From: Myxacorys almedinensis A
GTDB taxonomy: Bacteria; Cyanobacteriota; Cyanobacteriia; Leptolyngbyales; Leptolyngbyaceae
Length of the DNA stretch: 64,000 nucleotides
Assembly: GCF_010091945.1 (NCBI RefSeq)
Contig: NZ_WVIE01000004.1
Span: forward strand, 62,001 to 126,000
Reading direction: 5' to 3'
In this document: piece after piece, positions 27,811 through 60,952 of the stretch
How positions within the stretch are numbered: position 1 is the stretch's first letter
Layout of the letters: each line of letters begins with the position of its first letter
The notes under the pieces: generated by a model
What the model was told of the DNA's origin: nothing
Seen by the model: the letters and a program-made list of their open reading frames with translations, nothing else
Database searches by the model: none
Made by a program: the position numbers and the translations under genes

Positions 27811-28149
27811 TTAACGTTCAGGAGGAATTTGCAACTTTAACTCCTCAATCAAAGGTGGGATCTCTAATTGGATCACATCCCAAACGATGTTGAGGTTGAC
27901 ATCATCGTATTCATGCACTAGCCGATTTCGCATTCCATTGATTTCCGACCATGAGATGTTGGGCAAGTTCTGTCGTGTTGTTTCGGAAACTCGTCTGGCG
28001 GCTTCGGCAATTACCAAGAGCCGCCGAATCACTGAATCTTGAAGCTGCACATTTGCTACGAACTCAGCTTGCGAGCATTGAGCCGTGTAAGTCAAGATCA
28101 ACTCTGCAGATTGCAGCATATCAAGCAGGAATTGAAGATCCCGTTGCAT
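27811..28149 (-). CDS. hepT: HepT-family RNase toxin (DUF86)
   Basis: A 112-residue helical HEPN protein. The RX4HXY motif is intact at R74, H79 and Y81 (MRNRLVHEYDDVN), the active site of HepT-type RNases. It overlaps the 3' end of the nucleotidyltransferase gene by 29 bases, the standard MntA-HepT arrangement in which MntA AMPylates the HepT Tyr to neutralise it. It is the last gene of the operon with the restriction-methylation gene. Assignment to the family is firm; activity is inference. Confidence 0.9.
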   Translation of the reverse strand: MQRDLQFLLDMLQSAELILTYTAQCSQAEFVANVQLQDSVIRRLLVIAEAARRVSETTRQNLPNISWSEINGMRNRLVHEYDDVNLNIVWDVIQLEIPPLIEELKLQIPPER

Positions 28150-28453
28150 AAATCACCTGGGCGGAGGAAAGAATTTCGTGACGGCGTAAGTAGTTGCGGC
28201 TGGTTTCAATGCCCTGACGGGTGATCAAATCAACGTCTCGATCGAAGATGGTTTTTAGCTCGGCTTCCATTTGGTCGAGGGTGCTGAATGTGGGGTGAGC
28301 GTCCGGGTGGAATTGCACCATTACGTCAATGTCGCTGTCAGGGCGGAAGTCGTTGCGCAGGATAGAGCCAAATAGAGCAAATTCTGTCACCTGCCACCGC
28401 TCACAAAACTCAGCAATTTTTTCCATCTGTAGGTTGATCGCGGTAATGGTCAT
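28121..28453 (-). CDS. mntA: MntA-family nucleotidyltransferase antitoxin
   Basis: A 110-residue minimal nucleotidyltransferase. The GSX10DXD motif is intact: FALFGSILRN followed by PDSDIDVMVQF (G29, S30, D41, D43), so Mg-ATP binding and AMP transfer to HepT are possible. Its ATG overlaps the stop of the upstream methyltransferase gene in an ATGA (28450-28453), which implies translational coupling, and its own 3' end overlaps hepT. The genes form a defence operon. Confidence 0.9.
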   Translation of the reverse strand: MTITAINLQMEKIAEFCERWQVTEFALFGSILRNDFRPDSDIDVMVQFHPDAHPTFSTLDQMEAELKTIFDRDVDLITRQGIETSRNYLRRHEILSSAQVIYATGSSIPA

Positions 28454-50895: not shown

Positions 50896-52566
50896 ATGAC
50901 TAAGTTCTTTCGCTTTATCGCACTTGCTTTTCTCGTCGCGTTCCTCAGCCTATCGTCTTCCCATGCAGAAGTTTCTTCCCGGGCAGTTCCATCTCTTGAG
51001 ACGGCAACGATTCAAACTCCTCTCTCAACTCGTGGGGATGAGATTGTTGATCGCACAGGTCGAACCGTTTTACTCAGAGGCGTGAATTGGTTTGGATTAG
51101 AGACTGAAGCTCAGACCCCTCATGGGTTGTGGGCAAGAGATTATAAAGAGATGCTGGCTCAGATCAAAGGTTTAGGCTACAACATGATTCGGTTGCCCTA
51201 TTCGGTGAAAGGGTTACGGGCGACAACTGTTAGCGGTATTAATTTTGATTTAGGCAGCAACCAAGAATTGCAGGGAAAAACGCCTTTAGAAGTGATGGAT
51301 GCGATCGTTCAAGAGGCAGAACGACAGGGACTGATGATCCTATTAGATAGTCATCGGTTGAACAACACCCGCATTCCCGAACTGTGGTATGGCGACGGAT
51401 TCACGGAAACCGATTGGATTGACACTTGGATAATGCTAGCTGAGCGCTATAAAAATCAGCCGAATGTGATTGGGGCAGATCTAAAAAATGAGCCGCATGG
51501 CAAAGCGAGTTGGGGCACAAACGACAAAGCGACAGATTGGCGGTTGGCCGCAGAACGCGCAGGAAACGCCATTCTGAAAGTCAATAAGAATTGGTTAATT
51601 GTTGTTGAGGGTGTTGAGAAAAATGTCCCTAGGCAGAAGTTAAAGCAGCATTGGATGGGCGGCAATTTAGAAGGCGTTCGCAAGTTTCCGGTAAGGCTGG
51701 CTGTTCGGAATAAAGTCGTTTATTCTCCTCATGAATATGGCGCTGGAGTATTTGATCAGCCTTGGTTTGCAGAGAGAAGTTTTCCGAAGAACTTAAGCGA
51801 TCGCTGGGAAAAAGGCTTCTACTACATTGCCCGTCAGAAAATTGCGCCGATTCTCATCGGGGAATTTGGAGGCAGAAAAGTGGATGCAGAGTCCAAAGAA
51901 GGAATTTGGCAGCGACAGTTTGTAGCGTTTGTGAAGCGAAATCAACTGAGCTTTGCCTACTGGAGTTGGAATCCAAATAGTGCAGACACCGGCGGCATCT
52001 TGCTCGATGATTGGAACGCGATCGACGAACCTAAACAAGCACTTCTCAATCAACTTCTGCCTGCATCTAGACTGCGATCGCTCACAGAAGCTGTTTTGCC
52101 AAAGCCAAGTCTTCTGCCAAGTCCTGCGATCAACCCTATATCGAAGCCAATTAGTAGACCAATTTCGTCAACAAACCCTGGTTTGAAGCCCACGTTAAAC
52201 CCTCAACCTACGATCAATTCACCTGTACCGAGGGCGGGTAAACATGGCAAAACACCTGATCTGAACGCCAATCTGATGCTTCAATCGGACTGGAAAGAGG
52301 GGTTTTGCGCCAGCTTGGAAGTGAGAAATCCAAATCGAGTTGTGGTGAGCAATTGGCAGTTGAAATTTTTGATGCATCAAGCCGCAGTTTCTCAAAGTTG
52401 GAACGGTACTTTTGAGAAACAAGATTTGCGCTACACGGTCACGCCTCCAGATTGGGGACGCGACGTACAGCCCAACCAAACCATCTCGATGGGCTTCTGT
52501 GCAAAAAAGCTAGGAACCGATTACCTACCTAGACAAATTACGGTTACAAGCTCTAAACAGCTATAG
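50896..52566 (+). CDS. secreted GH5 cellulase with C-terminal CBM2-like module
   Basis: A 556-residue exported enzyme. Signal peptide (KFFRFIALAFLVAFLSLSSS ... HAE). The GH5 domain spans about 45-390: LLRGVNWFGLET, acid/base E199 in GADLKNEPHGKASW, nucleophile E323 in ILIGEFGG, and FAYWSWNPNSADTGGI. A Pro/Ser linker (roughly 395-455) joins a CBM2-like domain (DWKEGFCASLEVRNPN, VVVSNWQLKFLMHQA, WGRDVQPNQTISMGFCA) with two Cys that could form the family disulfide. It should bind and cut cellulose outside the cell. No gene regulates it visibly; 556 bases upstream are gene-free. Confidence 0.92.
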   Translation: MTKFFRFIALAFLVAFLSLSSSHAEVSSRAVPSLETATIQTPLSTRGDEIVDRTGRTVLLRGVNWFGLETEAQTPHGLWARDYKEMLAQIKGLGYNMIRLPYSVKGLRATTVSGINFDLGSNQELQGKTPLEVMDAIVQEAERQGLMILLDSHRLNNTRIPELWYGDGFTETDWIDTWIMLAERYKNQPNVIGADLKNEPHGKASWGTNDKATDWRLAAERAGNAILKVNKNWLIVVEGVEKNVPRQKLKQHWMGGNLEGVRKFPVRLAVRNKVVYSPHEYGAGVFDQPWFAERSFPKNLSDRWEKGFYYIARQKIAPILIGEFGGRKVDAESKEGIWQRQFVAFVKRNQLSFAYWSWNPNSADTGGILLDDWNAIDEPKQALLNQLLPASRLRSLTEAVLPKPSLLPSPAINPISKPISRPISSTNPGLKPTLNPQPTINSPVPRAGKHGKTPDLNANLMLQSDWKEGFCASLEVRNPNRVVVSNWQLKFLMHQAAVSQSWNGTFEKQDLRYTVTPPDWGRDVQPNQTISMGFCAKKLGTDYLPRQITVTSSKQL

Positions 52567-52609
52567 ATTTCAAGCCAAGCGGTCTGGAGTGCCAAAACTG
52601 GCATCAACC

Positions 52610-53341
52610 TTACTCGATCTCTCCAGGTTCCAAAATTCTTTGGAATAGATAACCTGTCCCCCTAGCTGTCAAAATCAGTTCTGGGTTGCTAGGATCATCT
52701 TCGAGCTTAGCGCGGAGGCGGGAAATATGAACGTCTACCACACGAGTATCAACGTGACGCTCAGGCGTGTAACCCCAAACCTCTTGCAAAATTTCTGAGC
52801 GAGAGAAGGGTTCTCCGGAGCGGCTTACGAGGAGTTCTAGGAGGCTAAATTCCATGCCGGTTAGGCGAATGCGTTCATCACCTTTATAAACTTGGCGCTT
52901 GTTGGTATCAATCCGAATGCTATTGATGTGGATCACACCAGAGCTAGGAATGCCTGTCACGCCCGTCTTGTCAACCCGGCGCAACACCGAACGGATTCGC
53001 GCTTCGAGTTCTTTTGGGGAAAACGGCTTGACGACGTAATCATCTGCACCGAGTTCTAACCCGGTGATGCGATCAGCGACATCTCCCAAGGCGGTGAGCA
53101 TGATGATTGGCACATCAGACTCTTTGCGAAGTTCTTGACAGACGCCATAGCCATCGAGCTTTGGCATCATCACATCGAGAACAACCAGGTCGGGATCGGC
53201 ATTGCGAAACGTATCGAGGGCTTCCTCACCGTCTGCCGCCGTCACCACATCGTAGCCAATCATTGAGAGGCGGGTCTCGAGAATGCGGCGAATGCTTGCC
53301 TCGTCATCGACAACTAGGATCTTTTCTTTATGAGTTTCCAA
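52610..53341 (-). CDS. rpaB: OmpR-family response regulator RpaB
   Basis: A cyanobacterial master regulator that binds HLR1 elements and controls light-stress and photosystem genes. The receiver domain has the phosphoacceptor in VVLDVMMPKLDGYGV, ILVVDDEASIRRIL at the start and the switch Lys in DDYVVKPFSPKELE. The DNA-binding winged helix contains EVWGYTPERHVDTRVVDVHI and ARGTGYLF. The sequence is almost identical to known RpaB/Ycf27. Both possible starts are TTG: 53350 lies only two bases after AAGGAG, so 53341 (METHKEKILVV) with an 11-base gap is preferred. Confidence 0.95.
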   Translation of the reverse strand: METHKEKILVVDDEASIRRILETRLSMIGYDVVTAADGEEALDTFRNADPDLVVLDVMMPKLDGYGVCQELRKESDVPIIMLTALGDVADRITGLELGADDYVVKPFSPKELEARIRSVLRRVDKTGVTGIPSSGVIHINSIRIDTNKRQVYKGDERIRLTGMEFSLLELLVSRSGEPFSRSEILQEVWGYTPERHVDTRVVDVHISRLRAKLEDDPSNPELILTARGTGYLFQRILEPGEIE

Positions 53342-53514
53342 GTTTTGCAACGCTCCTTGAAGTCAAATCTATAAACCTTAATTTTTGTACTTTATCATTA
53401 AAGATAGTAGTTCGTTTCTTCATTTTGAGGGCGTAAAAACCCTATTCTGTCTGAGCTTCAGAGTTTCTTAATGTTTACCTGTTCTACAAAGCAATCTAAT
53501 ATTAATTTTTGCAA

Positions 53515-54984
53515 ATGCCAAAAGTACGATCGACCTTTGTTTGTAATGAATGCGGAGCCGAATCTTCTCAATATTTCGGTCGCTGTCCCTCCTGTGGAAC
53601 GTGGAATTCTTTAGAAGAACAGGTCGTTCGCCCTGCTGCTCAGGCTGATACCGCGACCCGCGTTCGCAGCATTAATGGCAGTAAGACCCGCCCCGCGACC
53701 AAAAATCCCTCCGCTCATGCCGTTTCATCCTTAAAACTTACGGAAATTTCTGATCACACCGAAACTCGCTTAGCGTCGGGCTATACGGAGCTTGATCGGG
53801 TGTTAGGGGGCGGCATCGTTCCAGGGTCTTTGGTACTGATCGGGGGCGATCCTGGCATTGGAAAATCGACGCTGCTGCTGCAAACCGCCAATCAGCTATC
53901 GACGCGCTATCCGACGCTTTATGTGTGCGCGGAGGAATCGGGACAACAGGTGAAGCTGAGGGCGCAACGGCTCGGCATTAAGGGAGACAAAGGAGATGAG
54001 GGAGAAACTCCTTCTAATCTGTATTTGTTGCCGGAAATTGATCTGGATACAATTTTGGCGGAACTGGAGTCGCTGAGACCTAATGTTGCTGTGATCGATA
54101 GTATTCAAGCGCTCTACTATAGTGCATTAACTTCGGCTCCGGGATCGGTGTCGCAGGTGCGGGAATGTACGTCGATTTTGATGCGGGTGGCAAAGCAGCA
54201 AAATATTACGCTGTTTATTGTGGGACATGTGACGAAAGAAGGTGCGATCGCAGGTCCAAAAGTCCTCGAACACCTTGTTGACACGGTGTTGTATTTTGAA
54301 GGCGATCGGTTTGCCAGCCATCGACTGCTGCGCTCAGTAAAAAATCGCTTTGGGGCGACTCACGAGATCGGCGTTTTTGAGATGGTGGATCAAGGACTCG
54401 AAGAAGTTACGAATCCATCGGAACTGTTTTTGGGCAACCGAGAAGAAGGGTCTTCAGGAACAGCCACGATCGTAGCGTGTGAGGGAACCCGTCCTATCGT
54501 AGTGGAACTGCAAGCACTCGTCAGCGCGACGAGTTATAGTTCACCACGCCGCTCGACAACTGGGATTGAGTACAATCGCCTGTTGCAAATTCTTGCTGTG
54601 CTAGAGAAGCGAGTTGGCATTCCCCTTTCTAAACTTGATGCTTATGTTGCGTCGTCTGGCGGTTTAAATGTGGGAGAACCAGCGGCAGATTTAGGAGTCG
54701 CGGTGGCAGTGGCGGCAAGTTTTCGCGATCGCATCATCGATCCCCACACCGTTGTCATTGGTGAAGTCGGTTTAGGCGGACAAGTTCGCCCCGTTTCTCA
54801 AATGGAACTCCGACTCAAAGAAGCCTCAAAGCTTGGATTCACGCGGGCAATTGTTCCGAAAGGGGGGAGTTACAAAGACGTTGGGCTAGAGGTGATTCCG
54901 GTGTCGCGAGTGGTGGATGCGATGACGGTTGCCCTAGCGGGTAGTCGCAGTCGGCAACAAGAAGAAACGGAGGCTGAGGAATAG
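53515..54984 (+). CDS. radA: DNA repair protein RadA
   Basis: RecA-related branch-migration protein. From the ATG at 53515 (a TTG six bases earlier is unneeded) the four-Cys zinc finger CNECGAESSQYFGRCPSCG is followed by the Walker A GGDPGIGKSTLL, the RadA-specific KNRFG (LRSVKNRFGATHEIGVFEM) and a C-terminal Lon-protease-like domain (PAADLGVAVAVAASFRDR, VIGEVGLGGQVRPV). 489 residues. It is divergent from rpaB, with 174 bases between the starts. Confidence 0.96.
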   Translation: MPKVRSTFVCNECGAESSQYFGRCPSCGTWNSLEEQVVRPAAQADTATRVRSINGSKTRPATKNPSAHAVSSLKLTEISDHTETRLASGYTELDRVLGGGIVPGSLVLIGGDPGIGKSTLLLQTANQLSTRYPTLYVCAEESGQQVKLRAQRLGIKGDKGDEGETPSNLYLLPEIDLDTILAELESLRPNVAVIDSIQALYYSALTSAPGSVSQVRECTSILMRVAKQQNITLFIVGHVTKEGAIAGPKVLEHLVDTVLYFEGDRFASHRLLRSVKNRFGATHEIGVFEMVDQGLEEVTNPSELFLGNREEGSSGTATIVACEGTRPIVVELQALVSATSYSSPRRSTTGIEYNRLLQILAVLEKRVGIPLSKLDAYVASSGGLNVGEPAADLGVAVAVAASFRDRIIDPHTVVIGEVGLGGQVRPVSQMELRLKEASKLGFTRAIVPKGGSYKDVGLEVIPVSRVVDAMTVALAGSRSRQQEETEAEE

Positions 54985-55070
54985 GATAGATCGAGATCGT
55001 ACCTTCACCAGCGCGATCGCGATCTCAATTCTTGATACATTAGCTAAACAATGAATGAGTAAAGGGAATT

Positions 55071-55190
55071 GTGCAAATTAACGCTGAGCTAAATCATGAA
55101 TCTGCTCAAAAGCTAATCTACATAAAGAGCAGACTGATCAAGAAGAGACTGCGATCGCTTGCTCAACATAACCCAACGGTTGGGTTATGA
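55071..55190 (+). pseudogene. possible antitoxin remnant, 39 codons
   Basis: A GTG opens the frame VQINAELNHESAQKLIYIKS, which resembles the N-terminus of small cyanobacterial antitoxins with a long helix, then becomes basic (RLIKKRLRSLAQHN) and stops inside a palindrome. I recall similar starts but cannot verify the family. It occupies part of a 400-base gap without other genes. Confidence 0.25.
55167..55189. promoter_or_regulatory. 23-bp palindrome
   Basis: CATAACCCAAC and GTTGGGTTATG are exact 11-base arms around a single central base. No T-run follows. It could be an operator, a small dispersed repeat or the relic of an insertion. It lies 196 bases upstream of the HAD gene. Confidence 0.55.
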
Positions 55191-55384
55191 CAAGCACTCC
55201 GCATTCATATACTCAGAGTTTTCAAGTGAATTTTAGGAGAAACCCGATCTTGCGCTTTGAAAGGACGGTAAAGTACCGCGACGTACCTATCAATAGAACA
55301 GCAAAAATCCCTCTTAGAATCGATTATCTGAATTGAAAGGTTGAGAATACGATAGGGTGAGACTACAACGATTTTCGAGGAACT

Positions 55385-56170
55385 ATGCCTGCAAGCAATC
55401 CCACTCTTTTGGCGCTCGACTTTGATGGTGTGATTTGTGATGGGTTGAAAGAGTATTTTCAAACAGCGTGGAAGGCATATTGTCAGATTTGGCAACCGGA
55501 TCAAAACAATCCGCCAAAAGGTCTTGATCAGAAGTTTTATCGGTTGCGCCCTGTCGTGGAAACAGGGTGGGAAATGCCAGTTTTGTTAAGGGCACTGGTG
55601 TTAGAAACGAAGGAAGATGAGATTCTTGAGCGATGGGTAGCGATCGCATCTGAAATCATCACCAACCACAGGATCAAGCCTCCGGAAGTTAGCGCGATCG
55701 TAGACACCATTCGAGATCATTGGATTGCATCGGATTTAGATAGCTGGTTGGCTGAACATCGCTTTTATCCAGGCGTAGTTGAGCGACTGCAAAAAGCGCT
55801 TGCTCGCTCTACAAACTTCGTTATTATTAGTACAAAAGAAGGACGTTTTATTAAGCAACTATTGCTGCAACAAGGTTTAAAGCTGTCAGATTCTCAGGTT
55901 TATGGGAAAGAAACAAAGTGTCCGAAGCACCAAATTTTGCAAGAATTGAATCAAAAAAATTATGACAATGATTCGATAATTTGGTTTATTGAAGATCGCT
56001 TAAAAACTTTGCAAGTTGTTCAGCATCAACCTGCTTTAGAAACAGTAGAACTCTTTCTAGCAAATTGGGGTTACAACACTTCTGAAGAACGGCAACAAGC
56101 CTTTAGAGATAGCCGAATTAATCTTTTGTCGCTCGACCAATTTCGCCAAGATTTTTCGATGTGGTGTTGA
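55385..56170 (+). CDS. HAD family hydrolase
   Basis: A 261-residue haloacid-dehalogenase-like phosphatase. Motif I is LLALDFDGVICDGLKEY (nucleophile Asp and general-acid Asp), motif II the Thr in VIISTKEGRF, motif III Lys in GKETKCPKHQIL and motif IV IWFIEDRLKTL. The cap is helical and inserted after motif I. Substrate unknown. It is followed 101 bases on by nurA. Confidence 0.88.
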   Translation: MPASNPTLLALDFDGVICDGLKEYFQTAWKAYCQIWQPDQNNPPKGLDQKFYRLRPVVETGWEMPVLLRALVLETKEDEILERWVAIASEIITNHRIKPPEVSAIVDTIRDHWIASDLDSWLAEHRFYPGVVERLQKALARSTNFVIISTKEGRFIKQLLLQQGLKLSDSQVYGKETKCPKHQILQELNQKNYDNDSIIWFIEDRLKTLQVVQHQPALETVELFLANWGYNTSEERQQAFRDSRINLLSLDQFRQDFSMWC

Positions 56171-56271
56171 TGGCGTGGCAAGCAGTAATTTAGATTCTAA
56201 TCTTTTAAAGAAGACTGACTCACTCGATTAAAAGCGCTATGCTACTAGTGCAAAAGAACTGGTGTGCGCGA

Positions 56272-57477
56272 ATGCTGGATCTGACAAAACTCGCTCAGCA
56301 AATGCAAGGAATTAGTCAACATCTTACAGTGGAGGCAACTGCCACTCGTCAACGCATCGAACGTGCCGAACTGCTGATGGCACAAGCCTATGAGCGACAA
56401 GCAGAGCTAGTAGAAATGCAAAAACTGTGGCGCGATCGCTTCATCTTTACCGCCGCCGAGCCGATCGAATCGCTCAACAGCCGCATTGATATCGACTCCG
56501 CTCCGTTGGCTCACACAGTCATCGCGACTGACGGTTCTCAAATTGCGCCAAGCCATCACGAAATTGCCTACTGCTATTTAATCAACATTGGGCGGATCAT
56601 TTTGCACTACGGACAAAGCAAACTGCCTCTGCTTGATAGTTTGCCCGAAGCATTTTACCGTTCTGAAGATCTGTATGCATCGCGGCAATGGGGCATCCGC
56701 ACCGAGGAATGGATGGGCTATCGCCGCACGACTCAAGAAGCATGTGTGTTGGCAGAGTTAGCAGAAGCGTTGGGAGAAGAACGGGAGCGCGTCGCGCCGA
56801 CGATCTCGCTAGTGGATGGATCGCTGCTGTACTGGTTCTTGGAGCCGTTGCCTGCTGAAGCGCGGGATCAAATCTTAAGTCCGATTTTAGAGGCTTGGGA
56901 CAAGTTGCGATCGCTTGACGTTCCCCTCGTCGGCTACATCAGTGCATCGCGCAGTGGCGAAGCGCTGAACTTTTTGCGGTTACAAAGTTGCGCGTATCTT
57001 GCACCCGATTGTGCCTCCCATTGTGCTGGGCAAACAGGTCGCGAAGTGTCTTCTAACCGCGCTCCCTGCCAAGTGCTTGATCCCTTAAAGGACACGGCAT
57101 TGTGGGGGCGATTGCTTCAGCCTGGGCAGCGCAGCCCATTATGGAAAAGTTCGGCGCGAATTCAAGAGTTTTATGGGGATCATGCCATTCATTTTTGCTA
57201 CATGCATGTGGGGAGCGAAATCGCCCGGATCGAGGTTCCGGGTTGGGTGGCGTGCGATCGCGAAATGTTAGATTCAGCGTTGAGTTTGGTATTGGCTCAA
57301 GTTCAGAAAGGCTATGGCTATCCGGTAGCATTGGCGGAAGCGCATAATCAAGCCGTGGTGAGGGGGGGCGATCGCGCTCGATTTTTCGCCCTGTTAGAAC
57401 AGCAGATGATTCGCGCTGGATTGAAAAACGTGGGAACGTCTTATAAGGAAACTCGTAAACGGGGCAGCATTGCGTAA
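56272..57477 (+). CDS. nurA: NurA-domain DNA repair nuclease
   Basis: About 401 residues from the ATG at 56272; an upstream ATG at 56239 adds 11 residues. The NurA metal-binding Asp is in VIATDGSQIAPSHHEIAYCY, a second acidic site in ISLVDGSLLYWFLE, and a conserved C-terminal segment is YPVALAEAHNQAVV. NurA works with HerA in archaeal end resection; cyanobacterial NurA-domain proteins are widespread but uncharacterised as far as I know. A coiled coil lies at about 20-60. Downstream lies the decayed MntA-HepT locus. Confidence 0.88.
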   Translation: MLDLTKLAQQMQGISQHLTVEATATRQRIERAELLMAQAYERQAELVEMQKLWRDRFIFTAAEPIESLNSRIDIDSAPLAHTVIATDGSQIAPSHHEIAYCYLINIGRIILHYGQSKLPLLDSLPEAFYRSEDLYASRQWGIRTEEWMGYRRTTQEACVLAELAEALGEERERVAPTISLVDGSLLYWFLEPLPAEARDQILSPILEAWDKLRSLDVPLVGYISASRSGEALNFLRLQSCAYLAPDCASHCAGQTGREVSSNRAPCQVLDPLKDTALWGRLLQPGQRSPLWKSSARIQEFYGDHAIHFCYMHVGSEIARIEVPGWVACDREMLDSALSLVLAQVQKGYGYPVALAEAHNQAVVRGGDRARFFALLEQQMIRAGLKNVGTSYKETRKRGSIA

Positions 57478-57479
57478 TT

Positions 57480-57556
57480 ATGAACTTTCAAGCCTTGCAA
57501 GAAAAGCGGGATAAAATATTAGCGATCGCATTCTAGCGGAGACAAAACTGCTATGA
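57480..57556 (+). pseudogene. remnant of an mntA nucleotidyltransferase gene
   Basis: The ATG at 57480 starts MNFQALQEKRDKILAIA, the usual N-terminus of MntA-like antitoxins, then stops. In another frame the next 27 bases read ILAETKLL and end with TGA in an ATGA overlap with the hepT-like start at 57553, as at an intact mntA 3' end. About 80 codons, including the GSX10DXD site, are deleted. The overlap shows this was once an intact operon. Confidence 0.7.
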
Positions 57557-57908
57557 AAGACAGCCGAGTTTACCTGATTCATATTCGAGATTGTATTATA
57601 AAAATTGAAACCTATTTATATAGAAGGAAAATTCGGCTTTCTAGGTAATATAAAAACTCAAGATGTCGTCCTTGGAAAGCTGCAATCCTTGTTTGAATCA
57701 ACCCAGCGTTGACCTGATGAGTGGAAACAAGCACACCCTGAACTGAATTGTAGGCAAACGGGTGACTTCCACAATCTACTAACTCATCAGTATTTAAGTT
57801 CAGTATTTAGGTATTGATCTCACAGTTGTATGGAACATCATTGAGAATTATTTACCCGACTTAAAGCGAACAGTCGAAGTAATGACAGAAGAATTTCAGG
57901 ATACCTAA
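57553..57908 (+). pseudogene. remnant of a hepT-family toxin gene
   Basis: Family-like segments appear in successive frames: MKDSRVYLIHIRDCIIKIET, then EGKFGFLGNIKTQDVVLGKL, then EWKQAHPEL and HNLLTHQYL, and finally LGIDLTVVWNIIENYLPDLK with RTVEVMTEEFQDT at the end. At least three frameshifts and several stops interrupt it. The RX4HXY Arg is His in the surviving HNLLTHQY. It is distinct from the intact hepT at 27.8 kb. Confidence 0.78.
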
Positions 57909-57929
57909 ATAGTTGCTAAAGTATAGTTG

Positions 57930-58202
57930 CTAAAATTCCGATTCGTCGGTCAACGTTTCAATCAGCAAATCGACTTGTTTTTGTCGTTCTGCTAAAAAAG
58001 ATTCGCATTGTCGCAAATACTCGACCGCCGCAGAAAATTCTTCAAAGACAGCCGCGAGTTCTAATTCACCAGCCTCAATCCTTGTCAAAATTTCTTCAAC
58101 TTTGGCGACTGTTTCTTCATAATTCCAGTTGTCTTCATCAACAGTTGATGACAAGCGAGTCACCTTTGCAGAAGCCGTTTTAGAACTAGGGGAATTAGCC
58201 AT
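57930..58202 (-). CDS. xseB: exodeoxyribonuclease VII small subunit XseB
   Basis: A 90-residue helical protein. [20 protein letters not shown] and [20 protein letters not shown] fit the XseB family, which binds XseA in several copies. The first 25 residues are Ser/Lys-rich and variable. It lies 46 bases downstream of xseA on the same strand and is surely cotranscribed. Confidence 0.9.
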
Positions 58203-58248
58203 ATTACCCCAAAGATAAGCGAAGTGAGCGTTCTCTTCTTTATAATCC

Positions 58249-59502
58249 CTATTTAGAAAACTTGGGTGAAGCGTCTGATACGTCGGTGACTGTGACCTTG
58301 ATCTGCCCTTGACCTAGTTGAATAGTTAAATCTTCATTCAAATTAACATCCGCGATCGCTCGTACAATCCCACCATTCTGCTGCCTCACCACCGCATAGC
58401 CTCGCTGCAAGACGGCTTGAGGATCAAGGGTAGATAATTTTTCTTGCAGCATTTGGTGATGTTGCTGTGCCGTTTGAAAGCGGCGTTGCGTCGATTGGAT
58501 CAACCGTTGCCGCAGCCAAAACACAACTTGAGATTCTTGTTTGAGCAGACGATCGAGCTTCAGACGACCGCAGCGATCGCGCAGACTCTGCAAGCGATCG
58601 TCTGCACAACTCAAATATCGGCTCACGGCTTGATTCAAAGCATTCAGCCGATCCTGATGCTCAACCCGTAGATCTGCCAGACAGGGAACCGCTTGTTCGG
58701 CGGCGGCAGTGGGCGTGTGGACAAACACATCCGCCGCCAAATCAGACAACGATTCGTCACGCTGGTGCCCAATGCCTGCAATCACCGGAATGGGGCAATT
58801 TGCCACCGCTCGTACCACAATTTCATGATCAAAACATGCCATATCCTCGATCGCCCCGCCGCCCCGTGATAGAATTAGTACATCCGCTCTATTGTCACGT
58901 TCGACTCGTGCGATCGCAGCCACAATAGATGCAGGAGCCTGATCTCCTTGCACCAGTGCCGGAGAGAACAGGACTCGCAATCCGGGATAGCGGCGTTTTA
59001 AGGTTCGTTGAATATCTCCCCAAGCGGCAGCCTGCGGTGAGGTGACAACAGCCACCGTTTGCGGATGAAGCGGTAGAGGACGCTTTCGCGCTGGGTCGAA
59101 CAGCCCTTCTGCCTCCAGGCGATTCCGCAACTGCCGGTAGCGCAACGCTCGTAACCCCTCTCCCCCAGGCAGAGCTTGCCACACAATCAGTTGGTAAGTG
59201 CCGCGATGCGGTTGCACATGCACCCGACCCAGCAAAATTAGCTGTTCTCCCTGAACGGGCAACGTCGCTAACTTATGCAACTGACTCTTCCAGACCACAC
59301 AACTAATGGCGGCTTTCGCATCCGGGTCTTGCAGCGTGAAAAACAAGCCACTCTTGTATTGTGTTGCGCTCGACACTTCTCCGGTGAGCCAAACTTGACG
59401 CAGTTGGTCGTCTTGTTCGAGCAGCAGTTGAATGTATGCCGTAAGACCCGCCACAGAAAGGGCGGTATCTGGCACCAGCAAAGACGGCAAATTAAAGGTC
59501 AT
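58249..59502 (-). CDS. xseA: exodeoxyribonuclease VII large subunit XseA
   Basis: Catalytic subunit of a single-strand DNA exonuclease. The N-terminal OB fold begins [20 protein letters not shown] and continues with [20 protein letters not shown]. The catalytic core includes [40 protein letters not shown] and [17 protein letters not shown], and a C-terminal helical region follows. 417 residues, typical. It is divergent from recA, with the MITE-like repeat copy 2 between. Confidence 0.95.
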
Positions 59503-59629
59503 CGTGTGTACCCTGGAGGAAGGTAAAGATGTAAGCTCACCCGTTTAAACTCTCATGCTGTAGATGGAAAGATTAATTTCCATGCTACAAAGTTTGAGAT
59601 TCGTTGTTCGTCATTCATAGTTAGTTGTT

Positions 59630-59782
59630 ATACCAAATTGATTTTTCACTGCGACAGATCCTCGACCCACCCTGCCTAGGGCATCCCCCCTTGGTCAAGA
59701 GGGGCTTTTCGGCTCTCCTTCCTTACTAAGGAGGGGTTGGGGGAGGTCGCAGGTCTGTAGCATTTACAGATTAATTTGGTAT
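59630..59782 (-). repeat. MITE-like dispersed repeat, copy 2
   Basis: Full-length copy, 153 bases, bounded by ATACCAAATTGAT (59630-59642) and its inverse ATTAATTTGGTAT (59770-59782), 12 of 13 bases matching. The inside is inverted relative to copy 1 at 35532. No coding capacity. It ends 70 bases before the recA start, so it may carry or displace the recA promoter. Confidence 0.85.
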
Positions 59783-59851
59783 TAGATAGAAGTCACAGCT
59801 AACCCCGATCGGTCTATCCCCCATTTAATACTTTCATTTTCTGAGGCGCTA

Positions 59852-60922
59852 ATGGCAACCAAAACAGAGACTTCCGACAAGCAAAAAGCCCTAAGCATGG
59901 TGCTCACACAGATTGAGCGCAACTTTGGTAAAGGCAGCATTATGCGCCTGGGTGATGCCACCCGGATGAAGGTGGAAACGATTTCGAGTGGTGCCCTGAC
60001 GTTGGATCTTGCCCTGGGTGGTGGGTTGCCCAAAGGTCGAGTGATCGAGGTTTACGGCCCTGAAAGTTCGGGTAAAACGACGATCGCGCTTCATGCCGTG
60101 GCAGAAGTTCAGAAAGCGGGCGGCGTGGCGGCGTATGTCGATGCAGAACATGCCCTTGATCCTGCCTATGCTGCTAACTTGGGCGTAGACATTGACAATC
60201 TACTGGTGTCTCAACCGGACACCGGAGAAGCCGCACTGGAAATTGTCGATCAATTGGTGCGATCGACGGCCGTAGATATCGTCGTGATCGACTCGGTAGC
60301 TGCCCTTGTGCCCCGCGCTGAGATTGAAGGCGAAATGGGCGATTCTCACATGGGTCTGCAAGCCCGTCTGATGAGCCAAGCCTTGAGAAAGATTACTGGA
60401 AATATCGGTAAGTCTGGCTGCACGGTGGTATTCATCAACCAGTTGCGTCAGAAGATTGGCGTTACCTATGGTAGCCCCGAAACGACGACAGGCGGACAGG
60501 CGCTGAAGTACTATGCTTCGGTACGACTCGATATTCGTCGGATTCAAACCCTGAAGAAGGGCAATGAAGAATATGGAACTCGTGCCAAGGTGAAAGTGGC
60601 GAAGAATAAAGTCGCGCCGCCGTTCCGCATCGCTGAGTTTGACATCATCTTTGGTAAAGGCATTTCCACCCTGGGCTGTTTGATCGACATGGCCGAAGAA
60701 ACGGGCGTTGTGGTTCGCAAAGGGGCTTGGTATAGCTACAACGGCGACAATATCAGCCAAGGTCGCGACAATGCGATTAAGTACATGGAAGAAAAGCCGG
60801 AGTTTGCTGTAGAAGTTGAGAAACTGGTGCGCGAGAAGCTAGAAATGGGCGCAGAGGTGTCGGCAAATACGGTGGGTGTTGTTGATGAGCATGACAGCGA
60901 AGATGATGAGCTAGAAGAATAA
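59852..60922 (+). CDS. recA: recombinase RecA
   Basis: The strand-exchange ATPase. Walker [15 protein letters not shown], Walker [15 protein letters not shown], the L2 and filament residues in [20 protein letters not shown] and the acidic C-terminus ([12 protein letters not shown]). 356 residues, typical length. No LexA-type box is visible in the 70 bases between the repeat and the start. A terminator follows. Confidence 0.98.
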
Positions 60923-60952
60923 GACTCGTCCTGGTAACTGAAATTTTATTGA

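What the first reader, a model, noticed from the sequence alone, without database searches (positions are those of the whole stretch)
57480..57908. Decayed second MntA-HepT locus
The mntA remnant keeps its first 17 and last 8 residues, and its stop still overlaps the hepT-like ATG (ATGA) although the middle is deleted. The hepT-like part shows several frameshifts, and the RX4HXY Arg is lost. The antitoxin lost its catalytic site, so the toxin must have been inactivated at the same time or before; this is a snapshot of toxin-antitoxin decay. The intact pair at 27.8 kb belongs to a different subgroup.
Basis: seen in the sequence. Interest (0 to 1): 0.55.

Follow-up and report, generated by a model that had tools for sequence, protein, structure and literature searches.

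The report
Dead toxin-antitoxin pair behind nurA
A cyanobacterium carries the wreck of a two-gene toxin-antitoxin system whose sister species still has the antitoxin intact but a freshly broken toxin, which fits the expectation that such pairs die toxin first; it is a clean example of a known process.

Summary
Window 57480-57908 is a degenerate MntA-HepT locus directly behind nurA. The sister genome (Myxacorys californica) has the same locus at the same place with a full-length mntA, which fixes what was lost. The mntA remnant is 77 nt because exactly 211 nt are missing between two copies of the cyanobacterial palindrome HIP1 (GCGATCG at mntA positions 43 and 254). The hepT remnant has a +1 frameshift, an in-frame TGA, the RX4HXY Arg codon read as His, and a 13-nt tandem duplication. 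It evolves without constraint: polarised second-codon-position changes are 11 on the window branch and 1 on the sister branch.

The sister's hepT is otherwise open but has TGA at the same Arg codon, so there the toxin is broken and the antitoxin intact. In a census of MntA/HepT loci from 388 genomes of the class, 21 loci had a strictly intact antitoxin with a broken toxin, and 2 had the reverse (p = 7e-5). Toxin-first order is thus well supported in general, but not proven in the window's own lineage, where two other related MntA copies could have covered. A real, ordinary pseudogene; new member of a known kind.

The parts
56272..57477 (+). nurA (401 aa), intact upstream neighbour; in the sister genome mntA overlaps its stop by one base
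   Evidence: Pfam NurA E=1e-49; 95% identical orthologue in G001/Myxacorys californica; sister geometry
57480..57556 (+). mntA remnant, 77 nt: first 17 codons joined out of frame to the last codons; a 211-nt stretch holding the GSX10DXD catalytic site is missing
   Evidence: comparison with the 288-nt intact mntA of G001
57522..57529 (+). HIP1 palindrome GCGATCGC at the deletion junction; the sister has GCGATCG at both ends of the missing stretch
   Evidence: positions 43 and 254 of G001 mntA; 254-43 = 211 = 288-77
57553..57618 (+). hepT remnant piece 1 (N-terminus, ATGA overlap kept), ends at a one-base frame change
57620..57799 (+). hepT remnant piece 2, with an in-frame TGA at 57710-57712 and CAC at 57770-57772 in place of the Arg codon of RX4HXY
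   Evidence: sister has TGA at the same codon
57787..57812 (+). 13-nt tandem duplication (57787-57799, 57800-57812), second frame change
57804..57908 (+). hepT remnant piece 3 (C-terminal helix region, stop TAA 57906-57908)
   Evidence: Pfam HepT-like E=5.9e-5 for 57804-57896
57930..58202 (-). xseB-like ORF (90 aa; name by eye), convergent downstream neighbour, also downstream in the sister
28124..28453 (-). intact mntA of the other, distant pair (110 aa), for comparison
   Evidence: Pfam NTP_transf_2 E=1.9e-15; NCBIfam MntA_antitoxin 1.1e-11, below cut-off
27811..28149 (-). intact hepT of the other pair (112 aa), for comparison
   Evidence: Pfam HepT-like E=4.9e-25

Best explanation
This is a pseudogenised class I HEPN/MNT (MntA-HepT, 'type VII') toxin-antitoxin operon that sat directly behind nurA in the ancestor of the genus. 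How an intact pair works (established for relatives, not tested here): HepT is an RNase whose active site is RX4HXY, and MntA adenylylates the Tyr of that motif to silence it. In the window lineage the hepT reading frame was destroyed by several lesions, and mntA lost 211 nt between two HIP1 palindromes, most simply by recombination or slippage between these 7-8-nt direct repeats. Shown: homology, synteny, lesions, exact deletion length, loss of constraint in hepT. Strongly suggested (about 75%): the toxin died before or with the antitoxin, because the sister species has a dead toxin with a whole antitoxin at this locus and the class-wide census leans 21 to 2 that way. Inferred: the deletion mechanism, and that nothing from the remnant is functional.
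For: Syntenic sister locus with full-length mntA (95 aa; the GSX10DXD residues can be read in the translation, and one search's GS.{8,12}D.D pattern matches) and hepT cut by TGA at the motif Arg. Remnant 77 nt = 288 - 211, with GCGATCG at mntA 43 and 254 in the sister. hepT pieces against the sister: second-position differences 17 of 109 codons, against 8 of 401 in nurA; third-position 39 of 109 against 156 of 401; polarised with six outgroup loci, 11 second-position changes fall on the window branch and 1 on the sister branch. Census: of 148 non-edge units with an intact HepT, 2 have a clearly broken MntA (G082 nonsense, G183 5' truncated), one more (L350) has a 5'-truncated HepT itself, and no unit lacks MntA except 2 at contig ends. 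Of 26 inspected units with a broken HepT, 21 have an MntA with start codon, motif and stop; 21 vs 2 gives p=6.6e-5.
Against: The order of events inside the window lineage is not visible: the sister's hepT lesion (TGA at the Arg codon) differs from the window's (CAC at the same codon), so toxin loss there is a separate event. Other MntA copies in the genome (C9, C8) could have made antitoxin loss tolerable first. The sister is a metagenome-assembled genome, so its single TGA could in principle be an error. The HIP1 junction is one case: the synteny shared by the fetched contigs is only about 8.5 kb (52413-60923), too little to look for others.
Confidence: 0.88

Rival explanations
1. Antitoxin-first loss made harmless by cross-neutralisation: mntA was deleted first while another MntA (C9 or the orphan at C8) silenced HepT, and hepT decayed afterwards.
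For: Two related MntA genes in the genome: C9 (65% identity to the sister's MntA, with its own HepT) and C8 (61%, no HepT similarity downstream). Two loci with intact HepT and broken MntA exist in the census (G082, G183).
Against: Sister species shows the opposite intermediate at the same locus; the census favours toxin-first 21 to 2. In G183 the mntA truncation lies upstream of hepT and may also cost expression (inference).
Confidence: 0.15
2. One event silenced both genes at once: the deletion frameshifts mntA and may uncouple translation of hepT, whose ATGA start overlaps the mntA stop, so both products dropped together; the hepT lesions came later by drift.
For: ATGA overlap kept; 211 nt is not a multiple of three, so mntA translation ends 18 codons in, 16 nt upstream of the hepT ATG (geometry).
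Against: Loss of translational coupling seldom abolishes expression wholly (general knowledge); a deletion of this kind first would need the residual HepT to be tolerable. Not testable here.
Confidence: 0.2
3. Assembly or sequencing artefact of an intact pair.
For: Draft assembly (85 contigs).
Against: Remnant matches nothing else in its own genome; it carries many substitutions spread over all codon positions, not one or two errors; contig of 249 kb.
Confidence: 0.02
4. The remnant is retained for another role, for example a short peptide, a regulatory leader or a spacer between nurA and the xseB-like gene.
For: The first mntA codons and the ATGA overlap are still readable.
Against: hepT pieces show unconstrained substitution; nurA loci of other genomes manage without it (MntA/HepT hits downstream of nurA only in the two genomes of this genus; the window's own mntA remnant is too short for a hit there).
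Confidence: 0.05

Closest known systems
Class I HEPN/MNT (MntA-HepT) toxin-antitoxin pairs, e.g. Shewanella oneidensis SO_3165/SO_3166
   Same: Gene order mntA-hepT, HepT-like Pfam family PF01934, NTP_transf_2 PF01909 in the sister's intact MntA; the closest solved HepT relatives of the subgroup are chains named toxin-antitoxin toxin HepN family (6m6u, 5yep, 6m6w)
   Different: In the window both catalytic motifs are gone: GSX10DXD deleted, Arg of RX4HXY replaced, frame broken
Decay of chromosomal toxin-antitoxin systems (ccdO157 in E. coli, Mine et al. 2009)
   Same: Progressive loss of an addiction pair on a chromosome; two reviews cite it as a known degenerative process (PMC2654758, PMC7167474: passages read)
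   Different: Other family (ccd, type II); here the sister intermediate and a class-wide count are for MntA-HepT. The Mine paper itself is not held and is known to me only through those citations and recall
HIP1-associated deletion in smtB of Synechococcus PCC 6301 (Gupta et al. 1993)
   Same: Deletion in a cyanobacterial gene tied to the palindrome GCGATCGC (title seen in the reference list, and a passage on HIP1 in smtB, of PMC6331805)
   Different: There in cadmium-tolerant cells (title); here a natural deletion in an antitoxin gene. The original paper was not read

Membership tests
Class I MntA-HepT pair (functional member): window remnant | HepT of PF01934 with an RX4HXY motif in one open frame | tested here: not met
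   Arg codon reads CAC, frame broken twice, in-frame TGA; last piece matches PF01934 at E=5.9e-5
Class I MntA-HepT pair (functional member): window remnant | MntA with GSX10DXD | tested here: not met
   The stretch holding it is the 211 nt that are missing
MntA-HepT family (homology of the remnant, i.e. pseudogene of the family) | Sequence similarity and gene order mntA-hepT with abutting or overlapping ends | tested here: met
   blastn E=1.5e-60 to the syntenic sister locus; ATGA overlap kept; tblastn E=9.6e-31 to an intact HepT
Class I MntA-HepT pair: sister locus in G001 | MntA full length with GSX10DXD | tested here: met
   95 aa, PF01909 E=1.2e-10, pattern GS.{8,12}D.D present; NCBIfam MntA_antitoxin 45.5 bits, below the 60-bit cut-off
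Class I MntA-HepT pair: sister locus in G001 | HepT in one open frame with RX4HXY | tested here: not met
   TGA at the Arg codon; the frame beyond is open
Class I MntA-HepT pair | HepT RNase toxicity and its neutralisation by adenylylation | not testable with these tools
   Described in PMC7641770 (passages read); needs experiment
HIP1-bounded deletion | Both ends of the missing stretch in the ancestor carry the same HIP1 sequence, one copy left at the junction | tested here: met
   GCGATCG at 43 and 254 of the sister gene, GCGATCGC at 57522-57529 in the window, lengths agree exactly; ancestor inferred from one sister

The most novel reading that the evidence does not exclude
The direction of decay of MntA-HepT loci across this class of genomes is a natural genetic test of which partner is poisonous: HepT is lost first, by many independent lesions, while MntA is kept whole and often ends up alone. 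That agrees with the later biochemistry (PMC7641770) and goes against an earlier prediction in print that MNT is the toxin (PMC2701414). Retained orphan MntA proteins, like the one in M. californica, may stay on as immunity against related HepT toxins, and toxin lesions gather around RX4HXY.
Probability: 0.45. Interest if true: 0.5.

Novelty: new member of a known kind. Interest (0 to 1): 0.34.

Why it matters
Toxin-antitoxin pairs are expected to die toxin first, but intermediates at one locus are seldom caught. Here the same locus is seen in two sister species at two stages, and a count over the class shows a strong lean the same way. If the lean holds in a larger, quality-filtered set, the direction of decay could tell toxin from antitoxin in uncharacterised pairs without any experiment. 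The HIP1-bounded deletion adds one natural case to a small set of hints that this palindrome, whose role is still debated, sits at deletion end points.

Tried and rejected
Intact twin in the strain, i.e. assembly error: looked for with the remnant DNA in the own genome, only itself found. The C9 pair is a paralogue (65% to the sister's MntA, 38% to the G004 HepT), not a twin.

A lesion shared by both species, which would put toxin death in their common ancestor: not found. The only common target is the Arg codon, and it differs (TGA against CAC); the sister's hepT is otherwise open. Parallel loss is the simpler reading, though one ancestral change followed by others cannot be excluded.

HIP1-bounded deletions elsewhere between the two genomes: the whole of G001:C119 against the window and most of the rest of C44 (fetched) gave only four matching blocks, all at window 52413-60923. 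Too little shared sequence; dropped.

Clustering of toxin lesions: 17 of 28 first lesions (window excluded) lie within -8 to +15 codons of the motif Arg; scan test p=0.002. The positions were read by eye and the window width was chosen after looking, so it is a lead only. Several lesions sit after the motif and leave R, H and Y in place, so loss of toxicity there is assumed.

Selection on orphan MntA after toxin loss: one orthologous pair (G306/G324) differs at 6 third, 2 second and 1 first positions over 85 codons. Too few changes to claim constraint.

Census limits. 234 units came from 233 loci plus a window stretch. Hits not listed, and a few listed ones (for example G310:C17, G289:C249, G317:C284, G152:C1:874466, G027:C183, G031:C339), were not fetched. 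31 units with intact MntA and no HepT by the profile are not counted as toxin loss. Some are second MntA copies beside a pair, two (G123, G098) turned out to hold HepT remnants and moved to the inspected set, one more (G039) holds only a C-terminal scrap of HepT and was left out, and other toxin types were not looked for. From the 26 inspected toxin-broken units I dropped five from the strict count: G320 (MntA ends early), G261 (near a contig end), G015 (motif not matched), G186 and G372 (no start codon found within 20 codons). L350 was taken out of the reverse class because its HepT lacks its own 5' end. Units with both genes broken include G020, G072:C35 and the window. Sequencing error in metagenome-assembled genomes was not modelled; it should hit both genes alike. 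Relatedness between the counted loci was not corrected for.

Literature: searches (listings; passages read). One search found no paper holding all five terms; none of the listings shows a decay census for MntA-HepT, but subscription papers are mostly not held, so no claim of priority is made.

Full report
What is there. The stretch lies between nurA (56272-57477, Pfam NurA E=1e-49) and a convergent xseB-like ORF (57930-58202, name by eye). It contains an ATG with 17 readable mntA codons, a short mntA tail ending in a TGA that overlaps the next ATG (57553-57556), and a hepT-like sequence spread over three frames. A profile search of the pieces apart gives HepT-like for 57804-57896 (E=5.9e-5) and weakly for 57713-57799 (0.077), and nothing for the two N-terminal pieces. 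The DNA match to a sister genome (E=1.5e-60) and tblastn to an intact HepT (E=9.6e-31) make the homology certain.

Where it comes from. The genome is a draft of 85 contigs; the only other genome of its genus that is held is G001. In G001 nurA is followed by mntA, one base overlapping its stop, then hepT with an ATGA overlap, then the xseB-like ORF. Among the nurA loci fetched, tblastn with MntA and HepT finds hits next to nurA only in this genus. The pair was therefore most likely there in the common ancestor of the two species.

How it broke. The sister's mntA is 288 nt and carries GCGATCG at positions 43 and 254; the window remnant is 77 nt with one GCGATCGC at the junction. 254-43 = 211 = 288-77, so the whole difference is one excision between two HIP1 copies and no other indel. 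HIP1 occurs 96 times in the 64-kb window (1.5 per kb). The missing stretch holds the GSX10DXD site that PMC7641770 describes as the adenylylation motif (passages read). In hepT there are a one-base frame change near 57612-57620, a TGA at 57710-57712, CAC at 57770-57772 where the relatives read the Arg of RX4HXY, and a 13-nt tandem duplication at 57787-57812.

How old. Compared piece by piece with G001, hepT differs at 17 second, 19 first and 39 third positions over 109 codons. nurA differs at 8, 31 and 156 over 401 codons. With six intact outgroup loci to polarise the changes (at least 5 of 6 agreeing), second-position changes number 11 on the window branch and 1 on the G001 branch. First-position changes do not show this (5 on the window branch, 6 on the G001 branch). 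On balance the window's hepT has been free of constraint for a good part of the time since the split, and the sister's has not.

The sister intermediate. G001 hepT has a single evident lesion: TGA at exactly the Arg codon of RX4HXY, with the frame beyond it open and similar to relatives. Its mntA is full length with the catalytic pattern. So the same locus is seen with antitoxin whole and toxin broken in one species, and with both broken in the other. Because the two lesions at the Arg codon differ, this is a parallel loss and does not prove the order in the window lineage.

Census. I searched 388 genomes of the class with an intact HepT of the subgroup and with the sister's MntA, and fetched regions around listed hits. 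I built profiles in the box and classed 234 units: 142 both intact; 23 with intact MntA and a HepT in pieces or incomplete; 31 with intact MntA and no HepT by the profile; 3 with intact HepT and an incomplete MntA; none with intact HepT and no MntA except 2 at contig ends; the rest edges, motif variants, both broken, or distant nucleotidyltransferases. I then checked each broken HepT by tblastn against the nearest intact one and 26 neighbouring MntA genes for start, motif and stop. Of these 26, 21 have a strictly intact MntA. Of the three in the reverse class, two stand (G082 with a nonsense codon in MntA, G183 with MntA cut at its 5' end) and one falls because its HepT is itself truncated. 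21 against 2 gives p=6.6e-5; without the sister locus 20 against 2 gives 1.2e-4.

Lesions are of many kinds (insert sequences): an insertion of about 1.5 kb that splits HepT after codon 20 (G123; coordinates), a short element with terminal inverted repeats after HxYL (G074), a near-perfect palindromic insert (G044), an 18-nt tandem repeat (G020), nonsense codons and frameshifts. First lesions gather near the motif (17 of 28 within -8 to +15 codons, scan p=0.002), a post hoc observation.

What it works like. An intact pair of this kind is a class I HEPN/MNT module; PMC7641770 reports that MntA adenylylates the Tyr of RX4HXY and so blocks HepT, an RNase (passages). The solved relatives found by sequence are HEPN toxin chains for HepT and a putative minimal nucleotidyltransferase, 1wot, for MntA. 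An early comparative prediction had the roles the other way round, with MNT as possible toxin and HEPN as antitoxin (PMC2701414, passages). The direction of decay seen here speaks for HEPN as the toxin.

Limits. The window genome has two other MntA genes of the same broad subgroup, one with its own HepT on C9 and one with no HepT similarity downstream on C8. The phrase 'must have been inactivated' is therefore too strong. The sister is a metagenome-assembled genome. HIP1 as the cause of the deletion rests on one junction; a wider comparison failed for lack of synteny. HIP1 has been tied to a deletion in the metallothionein locus before (title in the reference list of PMC6331805), and PMC4390886 reports some evidence for site-specific recombination and none for homologous recombination (passages).

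Verdict. A real pseudogene of a very common family with a clean deletion junction and a good sister intermediate. The locus itself is ordinary; the 21-to-2 lean is the part worth following.

Noticed in passing
G000:C8:42965-43231 (L060): The window's own genome also carries a lone MntA-like ORF (89 aa, 61% to the sister's MntA) with no HepT similarity downstream: another orphan antitoxin candidate.
   Followed up: partly
L183 (G074), L242 (G044), L155 (G020), window 57787-57812: Four different insertions or tandem duplications within about 13 codons after the HepT motif Arg, three of them at or near TATTTAG: an element with terminal inverted repeats, a near-perfect palindrome, an 18-nt repeat and the window's 13-nt repeat.
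   Followed up: partly
L046 (G006:C1) 1460-1564 and 2491-2595: Behind nurA of a relative the last 105 nt of nurA are present twice (87% identical, 1031 nt apart), with a two-gene module that looks RelE-like by eye in between on the other strand: the nurA end seems to take up small toxin-antitoxin-like modules in more than one genus.
   Followed up: partly
L213 (G039), L200 and L300 (G038), L350 (G072:C49): Further degenerate MntA-HepT loci, including two in one genome (G038) and one whose HepT follows integrase-like sequence by eye.
   Followed up: no
L216 (G306) and L223 (G324): A lone MntA-like ORF sits upstream of a DnaG-like (by eye) reading frame in two related genomes, no HepT in either.
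   Followed up: partly
window 52413-60923 against G001:C119: The two genomes of the genus share only about 8.5 kb of synteny around nurA on the contigs compared, although NurA is 95% identical, which points to heavy rearrangement or fragmentation.
   Followed up: no
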